Assembly: GCA_949130485.1 (NCBI GenBank)
Contig: OX422183.1
Coordinates: 28,026,816-28,090,815, forward strand
Direction: 5' to 3'
Length of the DNA: 64,000 nt
Source of the DNA: Agelas oroides
Taxonomy: Eukaryota > Porifera > Demospongiae > Agelasida > Agelasidae
Both the position numbers and the translations under genes were made by a program. Of this stretch, positions 11,729 to 54,728 are shown in pieces. Numbering within the stretch: position 1 is the first letter of the stretch; every line of letters begins with the position of its first letter. The notes below the pieces were generated by a model that saw only the letters and a list, made by a program, of their open reading frames with translations, did not search any database and was not told where the DNA came from.

Positions 11729-11773
11729 GAGGAAAGGACAGAAAAACACAAGAAGGAACTTCAGGCATTGGAG
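11729..11773 (+). CDS. Coiled-coil exon 1 (45 bp)
   Basis: GTGTACAG acceptor, GTAAAC donor, phase 0-0. Encodes EERTEKHKKELQALE, close to the array consensus: charged helix with hydrophobics at positions 11 and 14. Confidence 0.8.
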
Positions 11774-11906
11774 GTAAACAGTAGATACTACATAGTGTTT
11801 GTATTCAGGTTACATCAATCTGACTAGTTCAATCTTCTGAGTGGATCATGCTTGCATGACCCATTATGTGACCTGTCTCTCAGTTTTGTTCATGCTTTAT
11901 GCACAG

Positions 11907-11951
11907 GAGGAATTGAAAGAACAACACAAGAAAGAACTTCAGTTGTTGGAG
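11907..11951 (+). CDS. Coiled-coil exon 2 (45 bp)
   Basis: GCACAG acceptor, GTGAAC donor, phase 0-0. Encodes EELKEQHKKELQLLE. Only 133 bp of intron separates it from exon 1, the tightest early pair. Confidence 0.82.
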
Positions 11952-11998
11952 GTGAACAACAAAAGTGTGCTTTAACATGTGATGTAATTGTGTGTGCT

Positions 11999-12020
11999 GG
12001 AGGAAATAAAGGAAGCATGT
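11999..12020 (+). pseudogene. Decayed coiled-coil exon fragment
   Basis: GGAGGAAATAAAGGAAGCATG follows the conserved intron tail GTAATTGTGTGTGC, but the acceptor AG is lost and a TAG follows. Confidence 0.5.
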
Positions 12021-12194
12021 AGCTTTTGTTTATGTCGAACCATTTGACTAGTTCAGTGTTTTGAAGTGGTGGACATTTTGTGCAAGTATTGTTTAATTGT
12101 ACATGTACTATACTTGAGAAGTTCATGATGTGGAACTGCTTAAGCTTTGTTCTGTATTAAATTATGTCCACAAATAATGTAATTATCTATACAG

Positions 12195-12239
12195 GAGGAA
12201 ATGAAGGAAAAACACAAGCAAGAACTTCAGACATTACAG
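12195..12239 (+). CDS. Coiled-coil exon 3 (45 bp)
   Basis: CTATACAG acceptor, GTATGT donor, phase 0-0. Encodes EEMKEKHKQELQTLQ, ending in Gln rather than Glu. Confidence 0.82.
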
Positions 12240-12358
12240 GTATGTAAGTAACATTGTTCTTACCCATTCTGTCTTTTGAAGTACAGATTTACATGTGGAT
12301 GTAAACAACAGTCAGTGCTTTTAAAAATGGTTGTACCATCATGTAATTGTGTATGCCA

Positions 12359-12390
12359 GAGGAAATAAAAGAATAAAGAAGCACAAACCT
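12359..12390 (+). pseudogene. Decayed coiled-coil exon fragment
   Basis: A GAGGAAATAAAAGAATAAAG trace after GTAATTGTGTATGCC; the TAA in frame and the lost donor show it is dead. Confidence 0.5.
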
Positions 12391-12486: not shown

Positions 12487-12540
12487 ATTCTACAAGAGGA
12501 AACGAAGGAAGTGCATGAGAAAGAAGCTCTTTTATTGGAG
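12487..12540 (+). CDS. Coiled-coil exon 4 (54 bp)
   Basis: TATTGTAG acceptor, GTAAAC donor, phase 0-0. Encodes 18 residues, ILQEETKEVHEKEALLLE. The acceptor type (GTATTGTAG then a six-base extension before CAAGAGGAAA) is shared with the exon at 33679, suggesting common descent. Confidence 0.78.
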
Positions 12541-12737: not shown

Positions 12738-12782
12738 GGAGGAAGGCAAGAAACAACATGAGAAAGAGCTTCAGGCATTAGA
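12738..12782 (+). CDS. Coiled-coil exon 5 (45 bp)
   Basis: GTGTACAG acceptor, GTAAGT donor, phase 0-0. Encodes EEGKKQHEKELQALE. The following intron was blown up to 15.6 kb by the composite transposon at 12893. Confidence 0.82.
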
Positions 12783-12896
12783 GGTAAGTAACATTATTCT
12801 TTTCCATTATCCATAGCAGTACAGATGTGCACAAGCTAGTACTGTATTTCCTTGATCTGACACCGAGGCTACTATTTTTTCTTGGCTGTTCATTAA

Positions 12897-14517: not shown

Positions 14518-14521
14518 AGCA

Positions 14522-16043
14522 ATGGCAGAGGACGAGAGCGCAGGCCAATTCCCTCCATTCACTCCCGAACAATTGCAATGGATTGATCAACTTATCACCG
14601 CGCGAACTGAGACAGACAACTCGAGAGTGGGGAATACGGGTGAAGACACCTCGACTCCTGTTTCTGGCCCCTCGCCTATCTCGTTGGTGACTCCTCCGGC
14701 GGGCAGTCTAACTCCGACCAATACCCTCGTCACTCCGGCGTCACGGGGAGGTAAGCTAGGGACGGGGGGGTTGGTGGGATGGGAAAGTGGGGTAGTGACA
14801 GTTTGAATGTGTTGCCTAGTGTTGTGCATGTGCCAAGCATGGCTCGACGGCAAGCTGCCGTTCAGGACTCCAAGGGGTCATTTGTCATTGCCAATGCAAT
14901 TGCCAGGTTGCCATGCTGGCAACTCTGCCTGCGGTGAGCATGGCCTTGTGCAGAACTATAGTTCTAGCTGGGTCACGGCTCGGTGGCCAGGCTGGCAGCC
15001 CTAGCAGTGTTATGTCACAGCTGCCAAGCTGGCAGATGGACTGCGCGCCCTGGCAGGGCCGTTGCAGCCTCCTTGCATGGTGTGGCGGCCAAGCATGGCA
15101 TGGTAAGCCATATCATTTCTGTCTGTTTGTTGTGCTCATTACAGGTCTACCCTTGACCGTGCCGACTTCCATGGCGGTCAGCTTTGCGCCAGTGTTTTCA
15201 ACCACGCCCGGTGGAATTGACCCGGTGGCAGCGGCGCTGAGTCGGGTGGGGCTCCCCTCATCAGAGTGTGCACAGACGGCTATTGTTCCTTTAGTGAACC
15301 CGGCGGTACCTCCAGTGGCCGACCTCTGTGGGGGGGCTGCGGCGATTCCAGGTTGGGGGTCTGTGCCACCTCGATTGACGAAGAAGATACTGGCACTGGA
15401 GTTCGTAGACATGTGGGAGCTGTTACCAGAATCATGGCGATTGGAACCGGCTGAGGCTGGTTGCTGCCATTCTCGTCGTCCGAGGCGTGGGGTGGTTACG
15501 AATTTCCCATTATGGGTGGAATGCTACGCCGCCCTGGTGGCTACCTTATCGACGCGGTATCCAGCGAAGATGCCACATTTCATGGCCTATTTACGGACAA
15601 TAACAAGGGCAAGTCGGAATTTCGAGGGCACGGCGTGGGCGTCGTATGATATGGCGTTCAGACGCCAGGCGGCAAATCTGCGGTCACTGGATTGGGGTGT
15701 CATTGACTCTGCTCTATATAATGAGGCATTCACAGGTCGGGCTCGGCTGATTCCGAGATGTCGTTTCTGCTTGGCAGACACCCACGACACCAAGGAGTGC
15801 ACCTTTGCGCCGGAGGAGAGACAATCACCAGTCCGGGCATTCTCTTTGCCTCGGGAGCAGAGATCTGTGCAAATCTGCCAATTGTTTAATAAGCCAAGCG
15901 GTAATGCCTGTAGGTACAGGCATTGTCGCTATGCCCATCTGTGCTCCAAGTGTCGGCGGGGCTCTCATCCAGCAGCGGAGTGTACAGGTCGCCACAGGCG
16001 CTCCCCATCCCCGAAGGAGGGTCGGCTAGGAGCAGCTGTCTAG
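14522..16043 (+). CDS. Ngaro gag-like protein, two exons
   Basis: Exon 1 is 14522-14750 (starting MAEDESAGQFPPF) and exon 2 is 15145-16043. The 394-bp gap has a GTAAGC donor and a CATTACAG acceptor, and removal leaves one 375-residue frame ending in TAG. Residues of the second exon give a conserved capsid-like block (ILALEFVDMWELLPESW, then MAYLRTITRASRNFEGTAWA) and a C-terminal cysteine/histidine region (CRFCLADTHDTKEC, then CRYRHCRYAHLCSKC, then H..EC) like a nucleic-acid-binding zinc knuckle. It precedes the RT gene by about 600 bp. Role by family: particle formation. Start choice: first ATG after A1. Confidence 0.8.
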
Positions 16044-16670
16044 ACAGCTTGAGTGGGACTGTTTGCCTGGTGATTATGCATTGTAGTAGTGTTGGTAGGT
16101 GATAGTTGTGTTTTGCATGCAACATTCCAAGATCACTTTTTCATAAATTCATGGACAACATTCAGTAGGGTGTGAAGTTGTAGGGGGGAGTAAGCAGGAT
16201 GGTCAAGCTGATCTTCCATCCCCTCTGTATATGGTGAATTTCAGGTGTCGGGTTCTAAGTATGTGCAGCTGTAGAGAGATAAAGGTTGATGGAGTCTTTA
16301 TACTAGAACAATGTATAGGGAGCATTAGCATTCCTAGTCATTGTTGATATTAATCAAACTGCACAATGACTAATCAGAACATGAGGGCCACTTCAGTTAA
16401 GTAGAGACATGGGGTTAATTAAGAGGAGCATGTATCTGTAAGAGATTTAAGTGGGAGACACAGGACCAATTAGTATCCTAATACAAGGATGGGGCTGTAG
16501 TACAGTGTGTATTTGCATGAATGTCACTAGGTCATGCCATGAATCTCAGTGCAGGTGTTGTGTTCTGGTTGAGCTGTTAGAGTGCATATAGGTCACTTGA
16601 GTCAGGCTTGACAGTGGAGGTGGTCCTGGTTAACTTTTCTTTCCATTACTATATAGGATGGTACCCATAC
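16044..16670. other. Ngaro inter-gene region
   Basis: AT-richer than the flanking coding parts. It ends in a good acceptor (CCATTACTATATAG at 16656) just before the RT frame, so RT may be made from a spliced message rather than from its own ATG. Confidence 0.5.
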
Positions 16671-18416
16671 ATGCCGGACCTCCTGTGTCTTCAGGCAGCA
16701 ACCCCCAGTGCCTCACCCTACCTCCCACCAGAGCTACGGGTGGTGCATTCACCATTACATGACCACTTGGATGCTTGGCGAACTGCTCTGGGGGCACACC
16801 CTGATCTACAGTTTGCTAGCTACATCTTGGCTGGGATCCAGTATGGTTTCCGAATTGGTTTCAGCCGCCGTCAGCAACTGGTGCCAGCCATTCGCAATGC
16901 CCCATCAGCGACAGAACATCCAGAGGTGGTGGAGCAGTACTTGACAGAGGAAATCTCAGCAGGTCGGATTATTGGTCCATTCTCGGAAGACGACATTCCG
17001 GGCATCCAAATCAGCCGCATGGGAGTCATCCCAAAGGGTCACACCCCTGGTCGATGGAGGCTGATCACTGACCTGTCATTTCCACCCGGTTCAAGTGTGA
17101 ATGATGGTATTGACTCAGAACTGTGCTCACTGCAGTACACATCAGTGGAGAAGGTGGCAAGGGTGGCCCAGAGGTTGGGGAGAGGCACGCTGCTGGCTAA
17201 GTTGGATGTGCAGGCTGCATATCGCCTGGTCCCAATTCACCCTGATGATCGCCCACTGCTTGGGGTTAGATGGGGTGATGCTTGCTATTTTGACGGGATG
17301 CTCCCGTTTGGCTTACGTTCAGCACCAAAGATTTTCACATCAGTAGCAGATTCATTAGAGTGGTGCCTGCGGCAGAGTGGGGTGACTCACATTGACCATT
17401 ATCTGGACGACTACATCACCATGGGTGCGCCAGGAACGAGTGAGTGCCAGCACAACCTCTCAATCATGTTGGATAAGTGTGAGGCCCTGGGAGTACCAAT
17501 TGCACCAGAGAAGCTGGTTGGCCCATCTTCATGCTTGACGTTTTTAGGTATTGAAATTGATACTGATGAGGGGGTGATGCGCCTGCCGGCAGAGAAGTTG
17601 GCCCGAATACAAAGTCAAGTTTGCAGCTGGTCTCAGCGTCAGGTTTGCCGCAGGCGGCAGTTGGAGTCTCTCATTGGCCTCCTCCAGCATGCCTGTCGGG
17701 TGGTGCGCCCAGGGCGGTCCTTCCTCCGGCGTATGATTTCACTGCTCAGCCACTCTTATCGCCCATACCACCACATTCGCCTAACGAAGCAGTTCAGGGC
17801 TGATTTGTGCTGGTGGCACACCTTCCTGCCCGCATGGAACGGGGTGTTTGTGCTACCACCCCAGTCTCAACCTTCCGCTTGCTTTGCATCAGACGCTTCC
17901 GGCCAGTGGGGATGTGGAGCATGGTGGGATGCACGATGGTTCCAGTTCAGGTGGCCCCAATCAGCGACGTCGTACCACATCTCTTTCCTGGAGTTGGTAG
18001 CGGTGTTGATGGCTTGTGCAGTGTGGGGACCAATGTGGCGAGGTCGGACAGTCTTGTGTTGGTGTGACAACCAGGCAGCAGTTTGTGCCATAGCAGCGCG
18101 GTCATGTCGGGATGCTAAGATGATGCATTTGCTCCGCTGCTTGTTTTTCCTTGAGGCATTTTGCCAGTTTGAGTTGGTGGCCAGTCATGTTCCAGGGATT
18201 TATAATGGGTTGGCAGATGATTTATCCCGTAATCGGCTCTCCTCTTTTCTCTCGAAGATCCCCCAAGCATCCAAGGAGCCGACAGCAATTCCTCCTCAGC
18301 TACCTCAAGTGCTACTGGATCCAGGCCTCGATTGGACCTCGCCCAGTTGGACCCAGTGGTTCAATTCTATTGTGAGAATGGACTCGCAGCCTCCACCCAC
18401 AGGACATACCGAGTAG
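16671..18416 (+). CDS. Ngaro reverse transcriptase / RNase H
   Basis: An intact frame of about 580 residues. RT motifs in order: GVIPKGHTPGRWRLITDLSF, LLAKLDVQAAYRLVPIH (first catalytic Asp), MLPFGLRSAPKIFTS, HYLDDYITMG (the YLDD box), then CLTFLGIEIDT. RNase H follows: ACFASDASGQWGCGAW, FLELVAVLMA, LCWCDNQAAVCAI and NGLADDLSR, so its acidic residues are present. It makes DNA from the element RNA. The first ATG in frame is used as start, but the frame is open back to 16608 and an acceptor at 16656 may matter. The 3' end overlaps the recombinase frame. Confidence 0.9.
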   Translation: MPDLLCLQAATPSASPYLPPELRVVHSPLHDHLDAWRTALGAHPDLQFASYILAGIQYGFRIGFSRRQQLVPAIRNAPSATEHPEVVEQYLTEEISAGRIIGPFSEDDIPGIQISRMGVIPKGHTPGRWRLITDLSFPPGSSVNDGIDSELCSLQYTSVEKVARVAQRLGRGTLLAKLDVQAAYRLVPIHPDDRPLLGVRWGDACYFDGMLPFGLRSAPKIFTSVADSLEWCLRQSGVTHIDHYLDDYITMGAPGTSECQHNLSIMLDKCEALGVPIAPEKLVGPSSCLTFLGIEIDTDEGVMRLPAEKLARIQSQVCSWSQRQVCRRRQLESLIGLLQHACRVVRPGRSFLRRMISLLSHSYRPYHHIRLTKQFRADLCWWHTFLPAWNGVFVLPPQSQPSACFASDASGQWGCGAWWDARWFQFRWPQSATSYHISFLELVAVLMACAVWGPMWRGRTVLCWCDNQAAVCAIAARSCRDAKMMHLLRCLFFLEAFCQFELVASHVPGIYNGLADDLSRNRLSSFLSKIPQASKEPTAIPPQLPQVLLDPGLDWTSPSWTQWFNSIVRMDSQPPPTGHTE

Positions 18417-19249
18417 CGTTAAACCGGTTTTCCAAGTTTTGTATGGAGTATGGTGTTAATCCATTCCCTGTGTCTGAATCAATACTGTGTTATTTTGTAG
18501 CATCTCTGGCACGACAGGGTTTGGCCCCTGCAACGATTAAGACATACCTGTCTGGGGTTAGACATGCCCAGATCATGAGAGGTTTTGAGGAGCCACGACA
18601 ACATTCGACCCTCCCACGCCTTCACTTGCTACAGGCAGGAGTGAAGAGGGTGCGGTTTCAGCAGGGCATCCCCCAGGCAAGGCAGCGATTGCCCATCCTG
18701 CCATCCCATTTGCGGCAGATCAGAGCTGTATGGAGCTCGTCACCTGACCCTGATGTGCTGATGTTGTGGGCAGTGGTTACTCTTGCGTTCTTTGGATTTT
18801 TTCGATCCGGAGAGATTACAGTTCCCTCAGTTACGGCATTCAACCCTACTCTCCACCTATGCTGGGGTGATGTCTCGGTGGACAGTCGAGAGACACCTAC
18901 CATGATAAAGGTACATTTGAAGGTTTCAAAGTGTGACCAGTTCGGCCGGGGAGTCAATGTGTTCGTTGGTCACACAGAGGATGATCTGTGCCCAGTCGTG
19001 GCTGTCCTGAACTATATAGCCCAGAGAGGTGAACAGTCAGGACCTTTTTTCTGCTTCAGCGATCACACTCCCCTCACTAAGGCACGTTTCATCACAAAAG
19101 TGCGGGAGGCGTTAGCGGCAGCGGGAGTGGATTGTTCCAGTTACTCTGGGCACAGTTTTCGGATTGGAGCAGCTACTACTGCAGCGCAGGCAGGTGTAGC
19201 GGACTCTGTGATACAAGCACTAGGGAGGTGGACTAGCGCAGCATTTTAG
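18332..19249 (+). pseudogene. Ngaro tyrosine recombinase, cut before catalytic Tyr
   Basis: Begins within the end of the RT frame (85 nt overlap, -1 frame). It has an N-terminal SAM-like part (STHRTYRVALNRF, LAPATIKTYLSGVRHAQI) and a catalytic part with FFRSGEI (first Arg), a Lys in VSKCDQFGRG, GHSFRIGAATTAA (His-x-x-Arg) and LGRW. The frame ends in TAG at 19247-19249 inside a T run. The remaining C-terminus with GYIRTP, which holds the expected nucleophile Tyr, continues in another frame to about 19313. A 1-nt loss is the simplest cause, so this copy is probably unable to integrate, unless it is a sequencing error in the homopolymer. Confidence 0.85.
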
Positions 19250-20009: not shown

Positions 20010-20204
20010 GGGCGAAAGTGGAGCCCCTGAACGGGACTCCAAACCTGAGTGTATGACCCTCCACCAAGCATCCCCCAACAGATACTAAGAAACTTACAGG
20101 TGGTGGAGGGTAGGTAAATAGAAGCGCGGCGGCCCGGACTTCGTCCAACACCTCACGGATTGATGCAGGTTGGGAAGTCTGCCTCACGTGGAAGGATATG
20201 AGTT
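20010..20204 (+). repeat. Ngaro repeat B2 and right end
   Basis: Copy of B1; ends GAAGGATATGAGTT. The next bases (AACTTCCGG) belong to the host transposon. The 85 bp between A2 and B2 (19925-20009) is single copy. Confidence 0.9.
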
Positions 20205-20324
20205 AACTTCCGGTTGACGACGACGACGACGACGAAAAATCTCAATAGAGGAATTGCATCTGACGTCACGTTCAATGACGTAATCTTTATCCGCCATTTT
20301 GGAAGGCACGGGTGCGCAGTCAAG

Positions 20325-21811
20325 ATAGTGAACACCTGTTGTGTTGTGGGTTGTGCGAATCGCCACGGAAGAGATAAAGGTTGTTCGTTCTTCAAGATAC
20401 CAAAAGTTATTACTCACCAAGGAAAAAAGGCGAGAGAACTATCCGAAAGAAGACGGATCGCGTGGCTTGCCAAGATAAACAGAAAGGACTGGCTGCCTGG
20501 ACCGGGCTCGCGTGTGTGTTCTGTCCACTTTGTCTCATCTAAACCTGCCTCGCTCTTCGATGAAACAAATCCTGATTGGGTGCCTTCACTCAGGATGGGC
20601 TATGAGGACAATTGTAGTGCTGAGTCAAGCTGCGTTCGCTATCAGCGGTCGGAGGAGAGAAGGAAGAGGAAGCGAGATCTAGATGCAGCCGAAGAAGCGA
20701 AGCGACTACGTGAGGAAGGTGAAAGTGAAGATCTTGTTTCAGGTGTTGCTTGTCAAACTGATGAATCAATGACTGATTTAGAAGCACAAGCAAAAAGTTT
20801 AGAAAAACAAGTACAAGAGTTGCGTGCAGAGCTGGAGATAACATGGAAAGACAACCAAGCAATGAGAAGTGAGGTTACAAATTGGAAATCCCTCAATGCA
20901 CAGCTAACTCGGTCTCCTGATGTTTTGAAGGATAATCCACAGCTGCTGAAGTTCTATACAGGCATACCTGAATGGACAATATTTATGGCCCTGCTGAATT
21001 TGTTATATCCTGCAATTCCTGATACCCCAACATGCAAATTAAGCAAATTTAGCATGGTGCTAATGTTTTTAATGAAAGTCTGGCTTAATCTTTTTGAAGA
21101 AGACCTGACTTTCCGCTTTGGTGTGCATAAGTCAACTGTATCTCGTAACTTCCATAAAGTTTTAGATGTAATGGCTGTCCGAACAGCACATTTGATCAAG
21201 TGGCCAGACAGGGACACACTCCAAGAAACTTTACCTAGCAGTTTTAGGCGATTTTTCAAACAATGTTGCATCATCATTGACTGCACTGAAGTTTTTATTG
21301 AGAGGCCATCTGATCTACTAGCGTGAGCACAGGTTTGGAGCAATTACAAGCATCACTCAACACTTAAATTTCTTATAGGCATTACTCCACAGGGAACAAT
21401 ATATCATATGTATCCCCTTGTGCTGATGGAAGAATGTCGGACAAGGAGATTGTGGAGCATTCCAACCTTATTGATTACCTCTTACCTGGAGACATTGTGA
21501 TTGCTGACCGAGGCTTTACCTGTGATGATTATGCCCGGATGGCCCTTGCTGAGGTTAAAACTCCACCGTTTACGAAAGGCAAGGAGCAACTGGAGAAGGT
21601 TGAGGTGGATTGGAGTCGAGAATTGTCAATTGTTCGCATCCATGTTGAACGAGTGATCGGCATACTCAAGCAGAAGTACACCATACTGCAGGGAGTGCTT
21701 CCAATTAGAGCTGTTTCTGATATGGATGAACAGCATGCTAGTGTAGATAAGTTAGTTAAAGTGTGTTGTGCTCTTGTAAATCTTTGCCCTTCAGTGGTTC
21801 CACAAGACTAG
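20325..21811 (+). pseudogene. THAP-domain DDE transposase, broken
   Basis: The N-terminus has a THAP zinc finger, a C2CH DNA-binding fold: CCVVGCANRHG, then RRRIAWLAKINRKDW, then RVCSVHF. A coiled segment follows (LEAQAKSLEKQVQELRAELE), then a helix-turn-helix FRFGVHKSTVSRNFHKVLD and a DDE_Tnp_4-type catalytic domain with IIIDCTE, VIADRGF and HVERVIG as the three acidic sites. Lesions: the codon where ATG is expected, just before VNTCC, is ATA at 20325; a TGA interrupts at about 21324; and the frame shifts by about 2 nt between 21380 and 21434. Its 3' end overlaps the opposite gene by 21 bp. It is probably the mobilising enzyme of the 13 kb element. Confidence 0.85.
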
Positions 21812-28396: not shown

Positions 28397-28423
28397 GAGG
28401 AAATGAAGAAATTGCGTGAAAAG
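28397..28423 (+). CDS. Coiled-coil exon 6 (27 bp)
   Basis: TGTGTACAG acceptor, GTGAAC donor, phase 0-0. Encodes nine residues, EEMKKLREK. Shortened at the 3' side relative to the 45-bp unit, so it may be a truncated copy using a new donor. Confidence 0.65.
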
Positions 28424-30762: not shown

Positions 30763-30807
30763 GAGAAGAGGAGGGAAAAACACAAGCAAGAACTTCAGGC
30801 ATTAAAG
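30763..30807 (+). CDS. Coiled-coil exon 7 (45 bp)
   Basis: GTGTACAG acceptor, GTAACT donor, phase 0-0. Encodes EKRREKHKQELQALK, the most basic unit of the array. Confidence 0.8.
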
Positions 30808-33678: not shown

Positions 33679-33765
33679 TGTCATCAAGAGGAAATGAAAG
33701 AGAAACATGAGAAAGAACAAGAGGTGATGAAGGAAAAATATGAGAAGGAACTTCTTTCATTGGAG
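33679..33765 (+). CDS. Coiled-coil exon 8 (87 bp, double unit)
   Basis: TATTGTAG acceptor, GTAAAC donor, phase 0-0. Encodes 29 residues, CHQEEMKEKHEKEQ followed by EVMKEKYEKELLSLE, two units read through in one exon. Either an internal duplication or loss of an intron fused them. Confidence 0.8.
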
Positions 33766-34010: not shown

Positions 34011-34055
34011 GAGGAAAAGAAGGAACTTTTTGAGAAAGAACTTCAGGCACTGAAG
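34011..34055 (+). CDS. Coiled-coil exon 9 (45 bp)
   Basis: GTGTACAG acceptor, GTTAGT donor, phase 0-0. Encodes EEKKELFEKELQALK; the usual His at position 7 is Phe here. Confidence 0.8.
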
Positions 34056-35737: not shown

Positions 35738-35791
35738 GAGAAAATGAAGGGAATGAGAGGAGATCATCAAAAAGAAGTTCGGAAACTGGAG
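35738..35791 (+). CDS. Coiled-coil exon 10 (54 bp)
   Basis: GTGTACAG acceptor, GTAGAC donor, phase 0-0. Encodes EKMKGMRGDHQKEVRKLE, 18 residues, a clear sister of the exon at 45452. Confidence 0.8.
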
Positions 35792-37597: not shown

Positions 37598-37645
37598 GAG
37601 AAAGTAAAGGAACAGTGCCAAAGAGAACTTGAGGCAAAAATGGAG
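37598..37645 (+). CDS. Coiled-coil exon 11 (48 bp)
   Basis: GTGTACAG acceptor, GTAGAC donor, phase 0-0. Encodes EKVKEQCQRELEAKME, 16 residues with a Cys at the position of the usual His. Confidence 0.8.
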
Positions 37646-38437: not shown

Positions 38438-38482
38438 GAGGAAATGAAGGAAAAACACAAGAAAGAGCTTCTTTCATTGGAG
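38438..38482 (+). CDS. Coiled-coil exon 12 (45 bp)
   Basis: GTCTACAG acceptor, GTGAAC donor, phase 0-0. Encodes EEMKEKHKKELLSLE. Confidence 0.83.
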
Positions 38483-38638: not shown

Positions 38639-38683
38639 GAGGAAATCAAGGAAAAACACAAGAAAGAGCTTCTTTCATTTGAG
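38639..38683 (+). CDS. Coiled-coil exon 13 (45 bp)
   Basis: GTCTACAG acceptor, GTGAAC donor. Encodes EEIKEKHKKELLSFE, two residues different from exon 12, so duplicated recently. Confidence 0.83.
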
Positions 38684-38844: not shown

Positions 38845-38889
38845 GAGAAAATGAAGGAACAACACAAGAAAGAACTTCAGGACTTGGAG
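38845..38889 (+). CDS. Coiled-coil exon 14 (45 bp)
   Basis: GTGTACAG acceptor, GTAAGC donor. Encodes EKMKEQHKKELQDLE. Confidence 0.83.
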
Positions 38890-39861: not shown

Positions 39862-39906
39862 GAGGAAATGAAGGGAAAACATAAGAAAGAACTTCAGACT
39901 TTTATG
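39862..39906 (+). CDS. Coiled-coil exon 15 (45 bp)
   Basis: GTGTACAG acceptor, GTAAAT donor, phase 0-0. Encodes EEMKGKHKKELQTFM. Confidence 0.8.
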
Positions 39907-40101: not shown

Positions 40102-40146
40102 GAAAAAATGAAGGAACAAAACAAGAAAGAACTTCAAGCATTGGAG
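40102..40146 (+). CDS. Coiled-coil exon 16 (45 bp)
   Basis: GTCCACAG acceptor, GTACAC donor, phase 0-0. Encodes EKMKEQNKKELQALE; Asn replaces the usual His. Confidence 0.8.
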
Positions 40147-41157: not shown

Positions 41158-41768
41158 AGAGGACATGTATAGCAGATTATAAAGCTTTTAAAGTTTGCCG
41201 AAAGTAATGTGAATCAAGTGCCTTCTGGTATGGTCTGTATATAGAAAGACTCGGGGAGACTACAATTATCCAAATTCTTGACTAACTGAAGCATCCAATT
41301 AATGAGCCATGGTGGCACTGTGAACTGAAAGTGAAGAAAATGTGACTCATTTGAATGACAATAGTCTTGATTAATTACAGACCAAAAGCAAATGTTTGGT
41401 GGTGAATTACAGTGAAAAACTTAGATTGATAGACACCTTGTTAATTAGAGCCTTTCTTTTAGAGGGGATGCCTCACTGGTACTGTAATGCTATATAGACT
41501 GACTTGCCCACTAGAAGTTTCAGTTTTGCATAAATTATCACTATATAGTACTTTGAAGGTTTTCTTGCAACATGCCCTCTTTTTTGATGCTTGCTTAGAT
41601 TCTACCTGCAAAGATCTGAGCAAAAGTGCCTAACACATAATTAATTAATGTACTACTGTGTGAGTCATTTATGTATGTTGTGTCCCTGCTATATTATCTA
41701 CTGTGTTGTAATTGTGTACACAGGAGATGGTGAAGGAACAATGTCAAAAAGAGGTGCGGGCATTGAAA
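41158..41768. repeat. Block duplicate partner of 51280-52254
   Basis: Shared: ACATGTATAGCAG, GAAAGTAATGTGAAT, the ATGAGCCATGG segment, TTAGAGCCTTTCTTT and GTACACAGGAG-type acceptor, the block ending with an array exon in each. Confidence 0.75.
41724..41768 (+). CDS. Coiled-coil exon 17 (45 bp)
   Basis: GTACACAG acceptor, GTAGAC donor, phase 0-0. Encodes EMVKEQCQKEVRALK, again Cys at the His position. Confidence 0.8.
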
Positions 41769-43068: not shown

Positions 43069-43128
43069 GAGGAAATGAAGGAGAAACATGCAAAAGAACT
43101 CCATGCGAAAGAACTCCAGGCTTTAGAG
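43069..43128 (+). CDS. Coiled-coil exon 18 (60 bp)
   Basis: TGTACAG acceptor, GTATGT donor, phase 0-0. Encodes EEMKEKHAKELHAKELQALE; the repeated AKELHAKEL shows an internal 15-bp duplication. Confidence 0.82.
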
Positions 43129-44627: not shown

Positions 44628-44660
44628 AGAAGACTTCAAGAAGAACAGGTAAATATTTTG
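44085..44660. repeat. Block duplicate partner of 53450-54225
   Basis: CATGCCGGTGCCTGCACTTT, TTGAGCTTGTTGCTTTGG, ATAGAGTGAGAACTAT and the RRLQEEQ exon with its ATGTCC acceptor region are shared. Confidence 0.88.
44628..44648 (+). CDS. Coiled-coil exon 19 (21 bp, one heptad)
   Basis: ATTATCAG acceptor, GTAAAT donor, phase 0-0. Encodes RRLQEEQ. Duplicated at 54189 with identical protein and one synonymous change, which supports it being real. Confidence 0.72.
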
Positions 44661-45451: not shown

Positions 45452-45505
45452 GAGAAAATGAAGAGAATTAAAGAAAATCATCAGAAACAACTTCAGGAGT
45501 TGGAG
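45452..45505 (+). CDS. Coiled-coil exon 20 (54 bp)
   Basis: GCGTACAG acceptor, GTATAG donor, phase 0-0. Encodes EKMKRIKENHQKQLQELE. Confidence 0.8.
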
Positions 45506-45850: not shown

Positions 45851-46956
45851 GAATGCCTTTATACACTATGCAAAATAAAACCCACTCATCCAGACATGCT
45901 AAAGTTTAGGTTTGGGCCTATTTGTGGATCATGAATCTCATTAACAGCCATGCTAAAACTGGTAACAGCCAAGTCTGTGTAATAAGCCTTTAGCCTGACT
46001 GTATCTGTCACCAGAGTTCTTATGAATATCATTAAATGGCTGCTTTATGGGCTGTTTTTGCTCTCATTAACAACCCTTTAACCACTGATCATGCTTTTTA
46101 GTGTCGTCTAACTTTGGCTGCATGCTATCAGTTGGTGCAATCAGTTTTGAAGATAGGTTTTGCGCTAGCAAACAAGGTGGGATAGGGGGGAGGTGGGTGG
46201 GCATAGTCATGACATGCCTTGCACATGGCAGCTGCCTTGGCTGTCTGTAGAACAGCCTTCGTCAGCACTGGCTGGACCATCTCTCACCTTGTTAGCACAA
46301 ATGGGCACAGAAACCACTCCTCTCTCCTTGTAGGGGTACCCATGCAGAAATAACAAGCTTGTACAAGGATGCTACAACTTTGTCAACAAGGTTGTGACAG
46401 GGTTGTGGACATGCTTGTCACAACCATGTCACAACCATGTCACAACCTTGTCAGTACTTTGTATATGAAACTGTAAACAGACTTAGACAACCATGTAATA
46501 AGTATGTACAACCTTGTCACAAGGTTGTTACAAGACTGCCAAATTTCGTTCTGACAAGGTTGTACAACTTAATTTCAAATTCAAAAATCCAATACTCTGA
46601 TCAATCCAATGATCAACAATCATATAGTGTTACAACACATACACATAATATGCATACTGACTCGAGTTCAGAAAGTCTAGGACAACAACACTATCAGGAA
46701 GTTCATTAGGTTAGAATTCCATGAAGCAGCTATAATTAAGTGTAACATTCAGTATTCTTCATCACACTTGCTGGTAAGCTAGGTTTCGTTTCAGCTTGTA
46801 CAGCTTTGATGGCCTGGCCCAACTTCTTTGACAACTCTGAAAGAAAGGATTTGGCACATCATGTCACTGTAATGGACACTGTCCTGAAGCATGCTTGTGT
46901 ATATGTAATGAGTAACGAGACTCAAACTGCATCTTCGTTGCTGTACCTTGAGTTAA

Positions 46957-47605
46957 CTCATTGCACGCGGGAGGCCACTTTAGTGGCCCAATAATTGCCA
47001 GTTAGCCCACGCAAAGGCCACTAAAGTGGCCCATAAAGTAGAACTCACCGTTTACCGTGAAGCTAAGAAGCTTAGCGAAACTCGGGGGTAGGCCCCTTTA
47101 TATTTAGTAGTAATGAGGCTAGACCACACCTTTTGGCTGACATCTTCACTCTGGGAAGGCAGGAAGACACGGTGCTAGTTCAGGTGATCGCAAGTTTAGC
47201 CGAGGTAGTCAGACATGAAGCTTTTACTCAAACACAGCAAGCAACAGCCTCCAGATTTCACTTGAGGTAGGAGTTCTACCTTCAAATAACTTGGAAACTG
47301 GCTTATAAGTCAGAGCTGTAAGCATCCAGTGGTAGAATCGTGCCGTTTCAAATTGAGAGTCAGCTACTATGTATAGGGAGTAGAGAAGGGCTTCAAACAA
47401 GTAGAAATAGCTTACTTGGCAGCAATACACCACTTAGATAAACTAGTCCAGCCTAGTTATGCACTATGTACACAATTTAAGCCACTGCCCAGCCAGGGCT
47501 TGCTAGCACACTTGTCAATTTTGACCTTCAGACTTGACAACGCTGATTATGGGCAATTTCTGCTTTGCTAAACTGAGCATGTAAATTATTTGCGTGTACA
47601 ATGAG
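46957..47605. mobile_element. 649-bp TTAA MITE
   Basis: TTAA at 46953 and 47606, termini CTCATTGCACGCGGGAG and its inverse ATTTGCGTGTACAATGAG. Near the left end, GGCCACTTTAGTGGCC (46973) and GGCCACTAAAGTGGCC (47016) are inverted copies of each other. Confidence 0.88.
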
Positions 47606-47734
47606 TTAAGATAGCTAGCTAGATATTTAGCTGATACAGAGTAGCCTCGTTTCCAGGCTAATTGCACATGTCATAACAAGAGAAAAGGAACAGCCAGCTG
47701 TGAGATAGATCACATGATGAGTAGTTCCCAAAAT

Positions 47735-48262
47735 TGGTTCGAGCCAGTGGCTGTCTACAATCACTGGACTGGACTAGTGGACTGGACTGGTGGACTGACA
47801 CTGAAAATCATTTTCTAAGAAGCCTGTGTTATGTTAACCCTAAACTTTTATACACAGAGGTGAAACATTGTATTGGGTATTGATTGAATAGCCTCGTTCC
47901 TAGGCACTTGCTTGAAAAATCGGGTGAGCTAGTGCCTGGGAATGAGGCTAGAGCATTACAGTGTAGCTGTATGCTAATGTGGTGTAATGATGACCACTTT
48001 CACTGAAGTCAGGTTGTTTAGCACTATAACATATGGAATGAGAAATCCATTACATGCCGGGTACACCTTAACTAATGCTGAAGGCCTAGTAAATTATTTG
48101 CTCCAGGACAACGGTATAGCTACAGAGAAGGCTACAGGATTCCACACAACTCCACAGACGAGTGAGTCTCGTTAGAAAGCGTAAAAAATGATTTTTAGTG
48201 TCAGTCCACCAGTCCAGTCCACCAGTCCAGTGACTGTAGACGGCCCGAGCCAGTAGAGAAAC
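47735..48262. mobile_element. TIR element with GGACTGG repeats
   Basis: The left arm CACTGGACTGGACTAGTGGA to GACACTGAAAATCATTTT (47762-47817) pairs with AAAATGATTTTTAGTGTCAG through CCAGTCCAGTGACTG (48186-48240). A 62-bp hairpin MITE is nested at 47889. Confidence 0.8.
47889..47950. mobile_element. 62-bp micro-MITE
   Basis: TAGCCTCGTTCCTAGGCACT and GTGCCTGGGAATGAGGCTA inverted, almost no loop; same terminal family as the 36384 element but no clear target duplication. Confidence 0.8.
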
Positions 48263-48354
48263 TAGAGGCATGTGCCAAATGTACTTTGATTAGCCTAAGA
48301 TGGTAACAGAGTGACCCACTGTATACAGCCTATAAACAACCCTTGCCCTTGGGC

Positions 48355-48932
48355 TAGTCTCGTGCCCAGACTATTTTTCGCACACGGAGGGGAAAAATAG
48401 TCTGGTCAACTGCCTATTCAATTTTTGTTCCAAGGAATGTGGCACTCCAATCAGATTGCTTCATGCAAATGACGTCACGTACAGCCATAGATAGCTATCA
48501 AAGATGGCGAGGCAGTTGAAGCGCTATGCAGGAGACTAAGCCTTGTAAAACCAGAGAACGACCGGCGAAGGAATGCCAAGACTTCTGTGAACGGGCGGTG
48601 TGTGTTTCTGAGCTTGAAAACTGGCAGTGTGAAGTTCCTTAGGCTTTCAAATGTCATTAAGATTGTCTCACGGCTTTCTGAGGTTGGCAGAGGTTTCATG
48701 TTTTGTGAATCTTCGTTTCTTGGCGTTCGGAAGCTCCGAGAAGGATGATCCCTGCAACAAGCCGTCTCTTTAGAGCTCTTTCGTAGTTTCAAGCTTTGTG
48801 TGACGTCACATAATACATTTTTGAAGACGTTGCATCACCAATTTTTAAACCGCACGGAACAAAAATTGAATAGGCAGTTGACCAGACTATTTTTCCCCTC
48901 CGAGTGCGAAAAATAGTCTGGGCACGAGACTA
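48355..48932. mobile_element. 578-bp element with 9-bp target duplication
   Basis: The inverted ends TAGTCTCGTGCCCAGACTAT... extend about 75 bp. CCCTTGGGC is duplicated (48346-48354 and 48933-48941). The interior has a 105-codon minus-strand frame (48475-48792, KLRKSSKETACCRD...) with TGACGTCA sites at both sides; it may be another captured fragment, unrecognised. Confidence 0.88.
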
Positions 48933-49560
48933 CCCTTGGGCTGCGCCCTCGGGCTCAGGTGATTTATGGACCATAAAACCCTGTCTACCTAATACATAAT
49001 GATACTGTACAGGCTCATTGCTACGTCTGAATATAATAATCCACTTTCATAGCCTATATAGGTCATGCACAATGTATAGCTGGTACAACAGCTTGCAGCA
49101 TACGCAATAAAAAAACACAATGGTAGACAGCTGTACCTGAAACAGCAAAGATGAAATATCCCATGGGCTTGACTTGCTCCCAGAAGCATACTCTCTTCAC
49201 TAGTAGGGCAGCACTGGGCGTGTAGGCTCAAGCCATTATGAGCAAAGTATGGTGGAAACTCTGTCTTCCTCCAGCCACTGCACGTATACCATTTTTAAAC
49301 CCGTCTTTACGCAGCTGTTTTTAATCTTCAGTACACGAGGCGTGGCGCGGACTTTGCGTTTCACGTATGCGCATTGCGCAATTCTATTTGAAGCACACTC
49401 TATGGCGGTTCCTATCAAACTTTCACGCGTTTGCAGGACAGCTCATTGTTTGATAAAAGCTTTTTGAAGAAACCATAAAACGTGGCTGTCAGCCCTTGAG
49501 TGCCACTGATTGACCACGTAACCACATTTACTCAGAGCACTATCAAACAATGCAGTGCTG

Positions 49561-49591
49561 CAGGTGATAACCCCCCCCCCCCCCCCCCCCC
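49561..49591. repeat. Poly-C run
   Basis: About 23 uninterrupted C bases starting at 49569 after GGTGATAA. Confidence 0.9.
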
Positions 49592-49746
49592 TGGAAACAG
49601 GGAAGCTAGAGTACAAGACTACCAAACAGAGGAGCTGGGTACAAGACTACCAGCTCACTGCTTGATTCTCTCCCACTCCCAAAATGTGGCAAGACGGTAG
49701 GTGTTCTGAGCATCACGCAGGGCAGACCCTTATCATAAAAATGTTA

Positions 49747-50410
49747 TAGAGTAGCTCATCAATCACCGGACACCACTTAATTCTGGACACCATCAAAGTG
49801 TCGGACAACAAATCTTTAAAGGTTGTATAGCTGCTACCTGATCTGACCTACTCTAGCTAGACCGTGACATAATCAATGAATTTCTCCTTTCCATGTCCTC
49901 GTTCCACACTTCCCCTATTTCGTTTCGAAGGCGCGCCATGTGCTAGGGAAAACCACTCCCGTTCGGTTTGCGAGATGTTGTAGGCAGTGTTGACATTGAC
50001 CCAAGCTGTTTACATTGAGTTGGTTGTAAGCCCTCCTCCAGCGAGCGCCTGCATAGCCGCATGCATGTACACAAACATTGCCGTGGCTTCCGGGTCGAGA
50101 GTACGCTCCGATCGAACATCGGAGTGCTAGCTAGCTATTTGTGTGTAGCGCAGCTGTAACCTATTTGCTAAAACCCTACAGAAACATAGTCCGCAGTTAG
50201 GGGTCACTTTCCGAGTACCGATGGTTCGGACAATTGCTACTTTTAAAGCTGTGACTGCATAGATCTTAATCGAGTGAGCCTGGCAGTTATCTATCTTGTT
50301 TGTCTTGATGATGTGAAGAAGCGTCCCAAGTACGGACGCATAGCGTTCAGCAGTCTGAGAGATATCGTGCTGTCCGTGTGATGGTGTCCGATAACGGATG
50401 GGTTACTCTA
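49747..50410. mobile_element. 664-bp TIR element
   Basis: TAGAGTAGCTCATCAATCAC at the left and GGATGGGTTACTCTA at the right with GGACACCA and TGGTGTCC inside, mariner-like. No gene inside recognised. Confidence 0.75.
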
Positions 50411-51279
50411 GTTGTACGGAAGAGCAAAAAAGATAGCCACATGAATGAGCAACTCATATACTATGTGCATCTCACATGCACGTAACATACAACACGCAGC
50501 ACACAGTGTGCATGTCGATACTGACCAGGAAACATGTATGTTACATGTATGTTGGATGTATGTTGCATGCATGTTTTTCAAACCAGCACACACGATGTAC
50601 GAAACATGCATGTCACATGCAGGTACCTGGTAACAACAACAAGAGCATAAAAAAAACAGGTTTTGCAGTAGTTAATTTATCTCAAACTTGTGTAGGGTCT
50701 TGTGACAGCTTGTCACAACCTTGTGCAAAGATACCAGTTTGTCACCAGGTTATAACAACCTGGAAACAAACTGACAACCTTGTTTCCAGGTTGTCATAAC
50801 CTGGAAACAAGGTTGTTGATAGCATGTTTCTTGTATACAAGCTTGTTACAACCATGTCACATGCTTGTGCAACCTTGTCATTTTTGTATGGGTACCATTT
50901 CTTGATCTGTAGGCAGTTTTCAGTCACTGACAGGTGGAGCGTTTGCTGGTCAAGAGCCCTGACCATTGAAATCTTGCTAATGAGTGGGTGTGGTTAAAGT
51001 CATGAACCCACAGAGATGTGTCAATGAAGCTTTGGCTCACGTTTCCAGTGCTAGCTCCAAGCAGCAGTGGAAATACGGAGTAGAGAAGGTATCCGTAGCC
51101 AAAAAGGACCTCCAGTAAATAGCCTATGGTGGTTAAAGAATTAAGCTGCCTCATCACGCTCATGTAAGGAATTACATATGCATGATGTACTGGAGTTCAA
51201 CTAATGAGGCGTGACAAAATACTCTGAAAACTGCTTGTTGAAAGTCTCATTCAATTCTCTGAATATTGGAGTTTGGAGA

Positions 51280-52260
51280 TTATGTACATGTATAGCAGCT
51301 TTTAAAGTCTGCTGAAAGTAATGTGAATTGAGTGCCTTTTGGTATGTTCTGTAGAAAGTCTCAAGGAGTGTTTCGTAGTATGTGTTAAGAGGTAGCTAAA
51401 TTACTTTGGGTAGGTGGCATCCATCTGCAGTACCTTGCTTGTTCAAGCTTCCACGTTTTAGAACAGTTAAAGGATTACGGTGAGACCTTGATTATCTGTA
51501 CCACAATTATCCAAATTCTTGATTAACTGGATCTAAAGAATCTGGAGAATGATGTCTCAGCATCCATTGAATGAGCCATGGCGGCTGAACTGTTAACTTA
51601 CAGTGAACAAAATGTTAGAGATGTGTAGTCTTCATTAGATACTACTGACCACAACAATAGTTTGAAAGTGAAATACAGTGGAAGCCTTTGAATACTAGAC
51701 ACCTTGTTAATCAGAGTCTTTCTTTCGGGGGATTAGTCAGGGAATGGTTCATTGATACTGTAAGGAGGACATAGTTGATCAGTTATTGCTCAGACATGCC
51801 CATGCACTAAAAGATGCATGAAGTTCACGGTAATTTCAGTTTGGCATAAACTATCTCCATGGTCCTTATACATTAGAATTTTTTCTTTAGTCATTAAAAG
51901 CAATACAGAGACATCAGTCAATCAATCAGTCACCATGTGTATGATGACTATCAGTTTTGTGCATGTGCACCAACTCATTAGTGAAACATGAGCAATTGTA
52001 TGGTAAATGAGAGAATTAGCCTTGGCCTTGCCCATCTTTCCATCACTTGCAGCATGTTGGGAGAGCCTGTAATGAGGCTATCAGAGAATCTAATTCTTTG
52101 ACTTTGAGGGGAATGACTATGATTAAAACACAATACTAATGTCGATTACTTGCATAGAATTATGTTGTGCTCTTGTTGGTGTTCACCTCTGTTGTATTTG
52201 TTTGTACAGGAGGAAATGAAAAAGAAACATGAAAGAGAACTCCAGGCATTAGAGGTACGT
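51280..52260. repeat. Block duplicate partner of 41158-41768
   Basis: Same order of shared words as in the partner and ends with an array exon (52210). Confidence 0.75.
52210..52254 (+). CDS. Coiled-coil exon 21 (45 bp)
   Basis: TTTGTACAG acceptor, GTACGT donor, phase 0-0. Encodes EEMKKKHERELQALE. Confidence 0.82.
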
Positions 52261-52350
52261 ACATGACACTGTGCACACAAACTTAGTTCTGTTCTCCTGT
52301 AAGCTACACAAACTACATACGCTGTCTGTTCACCTGCGATGTGTGTACAG

Positions 52351-52396
52351 GAGGAAATGAGGGGAAAAACATGAGAAAGAATTTCAGGAATTAAAG
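52351..52396 (+). pseudogene. Freshly dead coiled-coil exon
   Basis: Perfect GTGTGTACAG acceptor and a near-consensus exon, but one extra G (GAGGGGAAAAACATGAG) shifts the frame into TGA, and the donor GT is replaced by GCTTTC. The gene must skip it. Confidence 0.8.
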
Positions 52397-53449
52397 CTTT
52401 CTACCATTATGTTGCTTAGATCTCCCTTGACTCATGTGCAAGAGGGTTGTGGTTGTAACTTGACATAAACCAAATATTTGGACCAAAATACTTAGGGAAA
52501 GCTCTAGGGCATCTTGTTAAGCATGGTAGAAGATTATTCTCTGCTCAGTGGAGTTGGAATTATAATTAAGGTTACGATGAACAAGCTGTGCACGCGCTTA
52601 TTTATAATTATATTTATGACGTATGCCCGCAAGTCAGAATGCATTCCTACTGTTACTAACTTTGCGTCAATTTTAGTGAACTATTTTTATTTTCTGCGGA
52701 AGATAACAGCTCAACGGCCTTCCGTACTAAATTTTCGAGGTCGACTCGTCAAGTTTTGCCAAAAACATTCTGGACAAACCGTCAGAAAATGGCTTTTTCG
52801 GTCGTGGTTTACGAAGAATGCTACTCAAAATTTTATGTAGCGCCCACATTTCGAGCGCTGCTTGAAAATTGCCATCGACTCGACCTACATACTTGTGCTA
52901 GGAGACTAGTAACCGAAAACGGTGAGTTTGAGGGCCGTCAGTAAGCAGATATTTGACGCAAAAGAGTTTATGTGAAGGCTTTGTTCTGGATGGTGTGGAT
53001 TATATGCTGCTAGAGCTGTTATGACCAAAAGAGCATTGTGCATAGCCTGGTCTTCGGTATCTCCATAGGCTTTTGAAGCGCTAGAATACCTCCAAGCACT
53101 CTAGAGTTATAACGCTGACATTCAAGCGCATTTATTGAATTTTGAGATAGGACAGGTTGTTCATCGTAACCTTAAGGTAGTAGTTGGTGGCTGGTATGCA
53201 TGTTAATTAGTAGCTACCTGAATCCACTCAAATTTTTCATGAATAAGAGGAACTATAGCTGTCCATTTAGAACTCACCTGACAGTGTGCACTGAGCATTT
53301 TTTTTTCAAAGCAAATAAAGCCTATATTGCAAATTATTTTCATCTTTCACTAAGGTCTGTAATGATCACATTGTTAATGTAAGTTACCACATATGTGCAG
53401 CTAATTGTTACCTTGTACATACCATGGGTGTTGGGAAAATAGCCAGTAA
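52397..53449. other. Intron with unrecognised open frame
   Basis: 52514-52840 (+) is open and basic but has no recognised family. Nothing else was seen. Confidence 0.4.
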
Positions 53450-54225
53450 GAACTAAACAAAACAAAACCATGCCAGTGCCTGTACTTTTTTTGTCTGACA
53501 AATTCCTTGAGCTTGTTGCTTTGGCCAACCTCTTGGTAGCGGCTTACTAGGGACAATCCTCAAAGTCTTAAATGTCTAATGTGATTGTACTCTAAAAATA
53601 TGAATTAGTCAGGATGTCTAATTCTAATATAGAGTGAGAACTATACATCATGGAGTACGGTATAGTACTTCATATGCAGACATGCCAATTAAATCACCCC
53701 ATGACCATTGCAAATTTTTTCCCACTTAATAAAAAATGGCCATTGCATCAAAAATGTATAGAAAATGATTTGTTCAAAAGTCTGCTATAGATTAAATAAG
53801 GGGTGAGAATCAGAGTTATGGATATTAAAAACTTAATTTATAAGCCATACCATTCATTTCATGAGCAACAAGACTGTTTACATTGCTGGAGAATTGGTAG
53901 TGGGCATGACTTGTTTTCTGGCTCAGCTGATAATTACCAGACACACCTATATACAAGTGCAGTTTCCACGCTAATGCGCATATAGCTTAATGGTTCACAT
54001 ATACATAAGTCATGTTTCTGGTCTAGAATATTGATATGAATGTGTCTCTTGTGCAAAAAAAAATTACACTTCCCGTGCCTTATATATACATGTAATCATA
54101 TTTGAATTAAGTAATTTGTATGTTGTGCTCTCTTTTATACTACGCTATATGTTCACCTCTGTTATACCTGCATGTCCGCCATTATCAGAGAAGACTTCAG
54201 GAAGAACAGGTAAACAACATTTTGT
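53450..54225. repeat. Block duplicate partner of 44085-44660
   Basis: Ends with the second RRLQEEQ exon and shares the TTGAGCTTGTTGCTTTGG and GTTTCCACGCTAATG stretches. Confidence 0.88.
54189..54209 (+). CDS. Coiled-coil exon 22 (21 bp, one heptad)
   Basis: ATTATCAG acceptor, GTAAAC donor, phase 0-0, RRLQEEQ, copy of exon 19. Confidence 0.72.
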
Positions 54226-54695
54226 AATATTGATCTCCTACTGCTGGAGACAAAAACTAATTTAAGGGCGGTTTAATGAACTGCAGCACTGTTTTGGGGC
54301 AGTTAGGATGTCAATACATAAACATTCCTAAATACATAAACATGCTCCAATGTACTCAAGGATGGCTAGATTTGTACATACAAATTTTAGCCCACTCTCA
54401 GTATAGCGTATAATCTATGCCCTCTTTTTCGGTATGTACTCATTGTAACATGTCTTGTAAATCGACTTTCTTCTGTGATATGTTTCAGTGGTGCATTTCA
54501 ATATTAGCCAATGTTATTTTGACTGAAATGAAATTAATTTAATTTTAAATTTGGTGGCAACATCACTAAATGCCAAAGTTTCAAATTAAATTCTCTGCCT
54601 AACTTTCCAGCTATATACTACTATACTTATATATATCATCTTTGTTGTACTGTCTATTATTCTATGCCACATATTTTCTCCTGTGACATAATAAG

Positions 54696-54728
54696 GAACA
54701 ACATGCGAAAGAACTTGAAGCATTACAG
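54696..54728 (+). CDS. Coiled-coil exon 23 (33 bp, 11 residues)
   Basis: ATAATAAG acceptor, GTAAGT donor, phase 0-0. Encodes EQHAKELEALQ, one hendecad. The acceptor lacks a strong pyrimidine tract directly before it. Confidence 0.65.

What the first reader, a model, noticed from the sequence alone, without database searches (positions are those of the whole stretch)
11729..54728. An exon array: 23 or more mini-exons, each one coiled-coil unit, over 43 kb
Seen: at least 23 tiny exons between AG and GT sites, all phase 0-0, 13 of them exactly 45 bp and encoding variants of EEMKEKHKKELQALE, adding up to 348 residues. Known: coiled-coil genes usually have few large exons or unrelated cuts. Inferred: one helix module per exon lets the rod grow or shrink by exon gain, loss or skipping, spacing a death-domain/membrane head from its tail in a length-adjustable way.
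Basis: partly seen in the sequence, partly recalled or inferred. Interest (0 to 1): 0.92.

Follow-up and report, generated by a model that had tools for sequence, protein, structure and literature searches.

The report
Mini-exon array encoding a helical rod
A gene of an animal, probably a sponge, appears to build a long helical rod from 23 tiny interchangeable exons, most adding about four helix turns, and related copies have gained and lost such exons; collagen genes are built in a similar way, but from a different kind of protein, and no RNA evidence was available.

Summary
In detail: 23 AG-to-GT segments, all multiples of 3 and phase 0-0, 13 of them 45 bp, 348 residues. A model built from other loci only finds 21 of 23 (not the two 21-bp ones); all 30 hits lie on the + strand. 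A broadly collinear paralog 1.07 Mb away has 29 such segments, 437 residues. In 18 matched pairs exons are 84% identical with 3 gap columns, 60-bp flanks 68% with 309. At least six array loci, all on one contig. One carries five near-identical 149-bp exon+intron units in tandem; some window copies are decayed: exons are born and die. Phases allow joining to a death domain, a perhaps optional TM exon and an unknown domain X. The rod does not look like a heptad coiled coil: hydrophobic period 3.76 (paralog 3.71), almost nothing at 3.5, which suits a right-handed coil; a single helix stays possible. One repeat per exon is known from collagen: a new variant of a known kind. No RNA was available: splicing, skipping and rod function are untested.

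The parts
1954..2317 (+). death-domain exon, phase-1 donor (start codon inferred)
   Evidence: Pfam Death in 6 of 10 family members at E<=1, best 8e-06; the window's own member E=0.06, 13.9 bits against a cut-off of 22.6; FAS death domain E=1.5e-4 with the family profile; donor GTATGT
4585..4671 (+). transmembrane exon, 87 bp, phase 1-1 (perhaps optional); other acceptors fit too
   Evidence: 19-residue hydropathy 3.34; shorter counterpart in the paralog with gaps that keep the frame, read by eye; none flagged between death domain and X at two relatives
8542..9249 (+). domain X exon, phase 1-1, unknown domain
   Evidence: 144 matches in the own genome at E<=0.001, 150 of 201 candidates scored; no Pfam family at 0.001; no PDB fold at E<=0.001
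9868..9902 (+). linker exon, 35 bp, phase 1-0 (candidate, picked because its phase fits)
   Evidence: AG/GT and phase; no conservation test
11729..11773 (+). mini-exon 1, 45 bp
11907..11951 (+). mini-exon 2, 45 bp
12195..12239 (+). mini-exon 3, 45 bp
12487..12540 (+). mini-exon 4, 54 bp
12739..12783 (+). mini-exon 5, 45 bp
28397..28423 (+). mini-exon 6, 27 bp; in-frame 18-bp shortening of a 45-bp exon of the paralog
30763..30807 (+). mini-exon 7, 45 bp
33679..33765 (+). mini-exon 8, 87 bp (holds an extra 11-residue unit)
34011..34055 (+). mini-exon 9, 45 bp (42 bp in the paralog)
35738..35791 (+). mini-exon 10, 54 bp
37598..37645 (+). mini-exon 11, 48 bp
38438..38482 (+). mini-exon 12, 45 bp (not paired with a paralog exon)
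38639..38683 (+). mini-exon 13, 45 bp
38845..38889 (+). mini-exon 14, 45 bp
39862..39906 (+). mini-exon 15, 45 bp
40102..40146 (+). mini-exon 16, 45 bp
41724..41768 (+). mini-exon 17, 45 bp
43069..43128 (+). mini-exon 18, 60 bp
44628..44648 (+). mini-exon 19, 21 bp, RRLQEEQ
   Evidence: not found by the model
45452..45505 (+). mini-exon 20, 54 bp
52210..52254 (+). mini-exon 21, 45 bp
52351..52396 (+). decayed mini-exon (frameshift, donor lost); intact in the paralog
54189..54209 (+). mini-exon 22, 21 bp, RRLQEEQ; counterparts in the paralog and at the 16.67-Mb locus
   Evidence: not found by the model
54696..54728 (+). mini-exon 23, 33 bp; counterparts in the paralog and at the 16.67-Mb locus
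55820..55954 (+). candidate tail exon, 135 bp, phase 0-0 (weak)
   Evidence: AG/GT and frame; only its own match in the genome, not seen in the paralog

Best explanation
This is a real, many-exon animal gene (probably a sponge) coding for: death domain, perhaps a transmembrane segment, domain X, then a long charged alpha-helical rod. The rod is coded by phase 0-0 mini-exons, mostly 45 bp = 15 residues = about four helix turns. New exons arise by tandem duplication of an exon with its flanking intron; because each exon is symmetric, adding, losing or skipping one changes the rod without changing the frame. The rod most likely self-associates as a right-handed helical bundle close to 15/4 periodicity, and so sets the spacing and number of the death domains. 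Shown at DNA level: the segments, frames, exon-restricted conservation, paralogs, duplications and decays. Inferred: splicing into one mRNA, self-association, signalling role.
For: 23 symmetric segments, 348 residues. A model without window sequences finds 21 of 23, all 30 hits on +. Paralog with 29 segments, 437 residues. 18 of 18 compared pairs keep AG, GT and an open frame in both copies; exon identity 670/801 with 3 gap columns, flanks 1197/1769 with 309. dN/dS 0.49 over 17 pairs, bootstrap 0.33-0.77. Phases can run from death domain (out 1) through TM (1-1), X (1-1) and a linker (1-0) to the array (0-0). At 19.87 Mb a domain X exon with a phase-0 donor lies upstream, on the same strand, of array exons. 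Tandem 149-bp exon units, 98% matches. Hydrophobic period 3.76 in the window, 0 of 500 within-exon shuffles as strong; periods above 3.63 give right-handed supercoils (PMC4786415, passages).
Against: No transcript. The paralog's death domain has one in-frame TAG, so that copy may be damaged. Differences fall evenly on codon positions (44, 39, 41), so dN/dS is only modest support. Pairs were chosen by hand; 5 of 23 exons are left out, and two pairs (41724, 45452) are not in the same order in both copies. The linker exon was picked because it fits. The paralog's period is 3.705, with little power at exactly 3.75 (2.3 against 31.7 at its peak), and short stretches of the window rod scatter between 3.3 and 3.84. 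E-to-K pairs at i+4 are enriched (41 against 23.5, SD 3.6), which also suits a single alpha-helix. No homolog of the joined rod was found among predicted proteins or PDB chains.
Confidence: 0.65

Rival explanations
1. The rod is a stable single alpha-helix (ER/K-type spacer), a monomeric stiff lever whose length is set by exon number.
For: E+K+R make up 53.7% of the 348 residues, no proline; E-to-K i+4 pairs 41 against 23.5 expected, SD 3.6, on a 332-residue version of 21 exons.
Against: 21.6% L/I/V/M/F, in a regular stripe, more than a single alpha-helix should need (recalled).
Confidence: 0.3
2. The array is a decaying relic: the gene once made a rod, but today the mini-exons are mostly skipped or the gene is dead.
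For: Decayed copies inside the array; TAG in the paralog's death domain; paralog units without a clean acceptor AG at 16991 and 53086; dN/dS near 0.5 with even codon positions; transposon frames in one intron.
Against: Exon-restricted conservation and indel pattern in 18 pairs; bootstrap dN/dS at or above 1 in 1 of 1000.
Confidence: 0.15
3. The mini-exons belong to a separate gene, not to the death domain and domain X upstream.
For: Two to seven kb of intron between; no domain X in the 70 kb held around the 29.1-Mb array, and no death domain or X in the 30 kb held around the 16.67-Mb array.
Against: Phases that chain; death domain and array in the same order at two loci; domain X and array on one strand at 19.87 Mb.
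Confidence: 0.2
4. A repeated non-coding element that mimics exons.
For: Units share flanking intron sequence.
Against: All 30 matches on one strand, exon-only constraint and indel pattern, the six loci found are all on one contig.
Confidence: 0.03

Closest known systems
Fibrillar collagen genes (45- and 54-bp exons)
   Same: Rod coded by tandem small exons, many of 45 or 54 bp, each a whole number of structural repeats, thought to have grown by exon duplication (PMC4450265 and PMC2852846, passages).
   Different: E/K-rich helix-forming sequence instead of Gly-X-Y triplets; a death domain upstream; young exon duplicates and decayed exons visible.
Schistosome micro-exon genes (MEGs)
   Same: Very small symmetric exons that allow frame-safe alternative splicing (PMC4350168, passages).
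   Different: MEG products are secreted or gland-associated; here large death-domain and X exons precede an array of variants of one helical unit.
VASP tetramerisation domain
   Same: Right-handed coiled coil on a 15-residue repeat (title of Kuhnel 2004 in the reference list of PMC4721544; that paper itself was not held).
   Different: No sequence match of the rod in the PDB at E<=0.001; here about 23 units, one per exon, with histidine at position 7 in 10 of 13 45-bp exons.
Troponin T small alternative exons
   Same: Small alternatively spliced exons 4-8 in TNNT3 (PMC2447309, start of abstract in a listing).
   Different: A handful of exons; not an array of one repeated 15-residue unit.
Sponge death-domain immune-type genes
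   Same: Expanded death-domain genes and some TM-bearing NLRs in a sponge (PMC12909245, passages).
   Different: NACHT and LRR were not tested here; the partner is domain X and a mini-exon rod.

Membership tests
Fibrillar collagen | Gly-X-Y triplets | tested here: not met
   4 glycines in 348 residues, no proline
Fibrillar collagen | Tandem exons of 45/54 bp with whole codons at both ends | tested here: met
   13 of 45 and 3 of 54 among 23, all phase 0-0
Schistosome MEG | Most of the coding region in very small symmetric exons | tested here: inconclusive
   348 of about 790 predicted residues (775 with 21 mini-exons, plus 16) if head and tail candidates belong to the gene
Schistosome MEG | Alternative splicing of the micro-exons | not testable with these tools
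   no RNA data
Heptad (left-handed) coiled coil | Hydrophobic period 3.5 | tested here: not met
   power 0.0 at 3.5 against 21.2 at 3.76 in the window; 1.1 against 31.7 at 3.705 in the paralog
Right-handed 15/4 coiled coil | Hydrophobic period near 3.75 | tested here: inconclusive
   window peak 3.76, power 19.1 at 3.75; paralog peak 3.705, power 2.3 at 3.75; both above 3.63
Right-handed 15/4 coiled coil | Oligomer with right-handed supercoil | not testable with these tools
   needs biophysics; the joined rod was not folded
Single alpha-helix | Enriched i+4 salt bridges and few hydrophobics | tested here: inconclusive
   pairs enriched, but 21.6% hydrophobics in a stripe
Death domain | Match to the Death profile | tested here: met
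   6 of 10 family members at E<=1, best 8e-06; the window's own copy is below the cut-off, 13.9 against 22.6 bits; FAS 1.5e-4 by family profile
Death domain | Six-helix fold | tested here: inconclusive
   model mean pLDDT 53, helical; no fold search made

The most novel reading that the evidence does not exclude
A genetically adjustable molecular ruler: a death-domain protein whose reach and oligomer geometry are set by how many roughly four-turn helix exons a gene carries or splices in, forming a right-handed, histidine-layered rod, with at least six such arrays on one chromosome still gaining exons by tandem duplication and possibly differing between individuals.
Probability: 0.3. Interest if true: 0.8.

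Novelty: new variant of a known kind. Interest (0 to 1): 0.6.

Why it matters
Exon-per-repeat construction is textbook for collagen, where the duplications are ancient. Here the same logic appears for an alpha-helical rod, and some duplications are recent enough to see exons being born (five near-identical 149-bp units) and dying. This makes the old idea that fibrous proteins grow by exon duplication directly testable in one genome, and offers a natural series of long 15-residue-repeat rods for studying right-handed coiled coils. If exons are also skipped, it would be a length-tunable death-domain scaffold.

Tried and rejected
Heptad coiled coil: rejected by period. Chance or a strand-neutral repeat: rejected. 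A strict rule that exon lengths are whole helix turns: 7, 11, 15, 18 and 29 residues fit, but 9, 16 and 20 do not, and copies are not independent, so not claimed. A functional UG-rich acceptor element: TGTGT lies within 30 bp upstream of 13 of 23 exons against 6% of all AG sites of the window, but shared descent can explain it. Homologs of the joined rod: none at E<=0.001 among the 7996 and 7990 candidates scored. Identifying domain X: Pfam at E<=1 gave 13 families, each in 1 of 18 members, best 0.0098; PDB profile best Atg17 at 0.0055; Foldseek none at 0.001. Tail exon 55820-55954: unsupported by paralogs. One pair had wrong coordinates (dN/dS 0.404 there); the set was corrected (0.49), which is the value reported. 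Papers: searches (10 of 19 listed; 17 of 17; 4 of 4; 7 of 7) listed no paper on an alpha-helical mini-exon array of this kind, judged by titles and starts of abstracts only; that is not proof of absence.
Full report
Observation. The window lies at contig C1:28026816-28090815 of a 259-Mb, 141-contig genome. Between 11729 and 54728 there are 23 segments with AG before and GT after, all divisible by 3, all open in frame 0: 13 of 45 bp, 3 of 54, 2 of 21, and 27, 33, 48, 60 and 87; together 348 residues. Against chance: 28 + strand and 1 - strand windows reach a 15-residue score of 22; three shuffles, one strand each, gave 0, 1 and 1. A sequence-only model built from 25 units of other loci gives 30 window matches up to E=1, all 30 on +, and covers 21 of the 23; the two 21-bp segments are missed.

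Paralogs. DNA searches find array units at C1 16.67, 19.61, 19.79 and 19.87 Mb (- strand) and 28.04-28.08 and 29.10-29.14 Mb (+ strand); the tool calls such counts lower bounds. All found are on one contig; 19.79 Mb was not read. The 29.1-Mb copy is broadly collinear with the window from the death domain to the last mini-exon, with some units out of order. I list 29 segments there with AG/GT and open frame, 437 residues; at least two more units, at 16991 and 53086 of the joined stretch, lack a clean acceptor and are not counted.

Constraint. For 18 matched exon pairs, identity is 670/801 in exons with 3 gap columns (one pair, 45 against 42 bp), and 1197/1769 in the 60-bp flanks, splice sites left out, with 309 gap columns; all 18 pairs keep AG, GT and an open frame in both copies. 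Pairs were chosen by hand from the matches and by likeness; two (41724, 45452) are not in the same order in both copies. Left out, 5 of 23: 28397 (27 against 45 bp), 33679 (87 bp against a shorter partner), 38438 and 43069 (no clear partner) and 44628; also the decayed 52351. dN/dS over 17 equal-length pairs is 0.49 (bootstrap 0.33-0.77; 1 of 1000 at or above 1), but differences are even over codon positions (44, 39, 41), and the paralog's death domain has a TAG. The exon-only conservation and indel pattern are the stronger evidence.

Gene context. Upstream lie a death domain (1954-2317; Pfam Death in 6 of 10 family members at E<=1, best 8e-06, the window's own copy below the cut-off; FAS by profile 1.5e-4), a TM segment (4585-4671) and domain X (8542-9249), which has 144 matches in the genome at E<=0.001 with 150 of 201 candidates scored. 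A search with death domain, TM and X joined found 46 predicted proteins, the window's own included, without names, 43 of the other 45 from ENA. Phases can chain as 1, 1-1, 1-1, 1-0 (linker 9868-9902, picked because it fits), 0-0. Death domain and domain X lie in the same order on one strand at C21:5.25, C1:15.66 and C3:3.22 Mb. A scan for a phase 1-1 hydrophobic exon between them found none at C21 and C1:15.66; the same scan missed the paralog's own shorter TM-like exon and found one ahead of X at L029, so the TM exon being optional is only a suggestion. At 19.87 Mb, domain X ends in a phase-0 donor and array exons follow on the same strand; about 3 kb in between could not be read. In the 30 kb held around the 16.67-Mb array no death domain or X was found, and no X in the 70 kb around the 29.1-Mb array. 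Downstream of X at C1:15.66 and C21:5.25 Mb no array was seen in the roughly 9 kb held for each.

Birth and death of exons. At 16.67 Mb five VKMKEDHEKELQTLK-type exons sit in a 149-bp tandem; TRF gives 4.8 copies, 98% matches. At 19.61 Mb a pair of exons is repeated about 1.8 kb apart. At 19.87 Mb one exon holds 11+11+15-residue units, and window exon 33679-33765 holds an extra 11-residue unit. Window exon 28397 is the paralog's 45-bp exon minus 18 bp in frame; 52351 is frameshifted and has lost its donor while the paralog's is intact; weak relics lie near 11453, 11533, 11977, 12338 and 28628. A 21-bp RRLQEEQ-like exon and then a 33-bp exon near the end of the array recur at three loci.

What the rod is. 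Positions 1 and 10 are E in 13 of 13 45-bp exons, 11 is L in 12, 14 is L in 11 and F in 2, 7 is H in 10. The hydrophobic period is 3.76 in the window and 3.705 in the paralog, with almost no power at 3.5 in either; 0 of 500 within-exon shuffles reach the window's peak. Against a clean 15/4: the paralog has little power at exactly 3.75, and short stretches of the window rod scatter from 3.3 to 3.84. Periods above 3.63 give right-handed supercoils, and 15/4=3.75 is as right-handed as heptads are left-handed (PMC4786415, passages). Salt-bridge spacing keeps a single alpha-helix open. The joined rod was not folded; domain X gave a moderate model (mean pLDDT 74) without a convincing fold match, and the death-domain model was poor (pLDDT 53).

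Mechanism. Most likely each symmetric exon adds about four helix turns; the rod self-associates and sets spacing and number of death domains. The exon array is shown at DNA level, splicing and self-association are inferred, and the signalling role is by analogy to known death domains.

Known kinds. Collagen genes are the closest precedent, with 45- and 54-bp exons; schistosome MEGs share small symmetric exons; VASP shares a 15-residue right-handed repeat. None fits as a family. That the organism is a sponge is my inference from recalled sponge-type death-domain families and from the many death-domain genes reported for a sponge (PMC12909245, passages); no call names the species.

Noticed in passing
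window 14820-19249 (+): Retroelement with a reverse transcriptase frame followed by a tyrosine-recombinase-like frame (RVT_1 2.9e-13; Phage_integrase 5.1e-05, below its cut-off), DIRS-like by recall, in the 15.6-kb intron between mini-exons 5 and 6.
   Followed up: partly
window 20202-21326 (+): Frame with THAP and HTH_Tnp_4 domains, transposase-like, in the same intron.
   Followed up: partly
window 6623-7276 and 31756-33032: An inverted repeat (nearly the same frame on both strands at 6623-7105 and 6794-7276), with further copies at 31756-33032 and in the paralog region: probably a foldback mobile element.
   Followed up: no
window 1-790: Tandem repeat of about 70 bp just upstream of the gene, seen by eye.
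   Followed up: no
about 4.1-4.6 kb before the window start (L019) and about C1:29148400-29150870 (L015): Ankyrin-repeat-like segments near both arrays, by impression one repeat per exon.
   Followed up: no
G000:C1:28035356 and 143 further places: Domain X is a large unnamed family (144 matches) without a Pfam or PDB assignment here, sometimes inside frames over 1000 aa.
   Followed up: partly
window 46329-50892: Stretches 91-99% identical to the paralog region near 29.13 Mb, well above most other matches: a shared young insertion or gene conversion.
   Followed up: no
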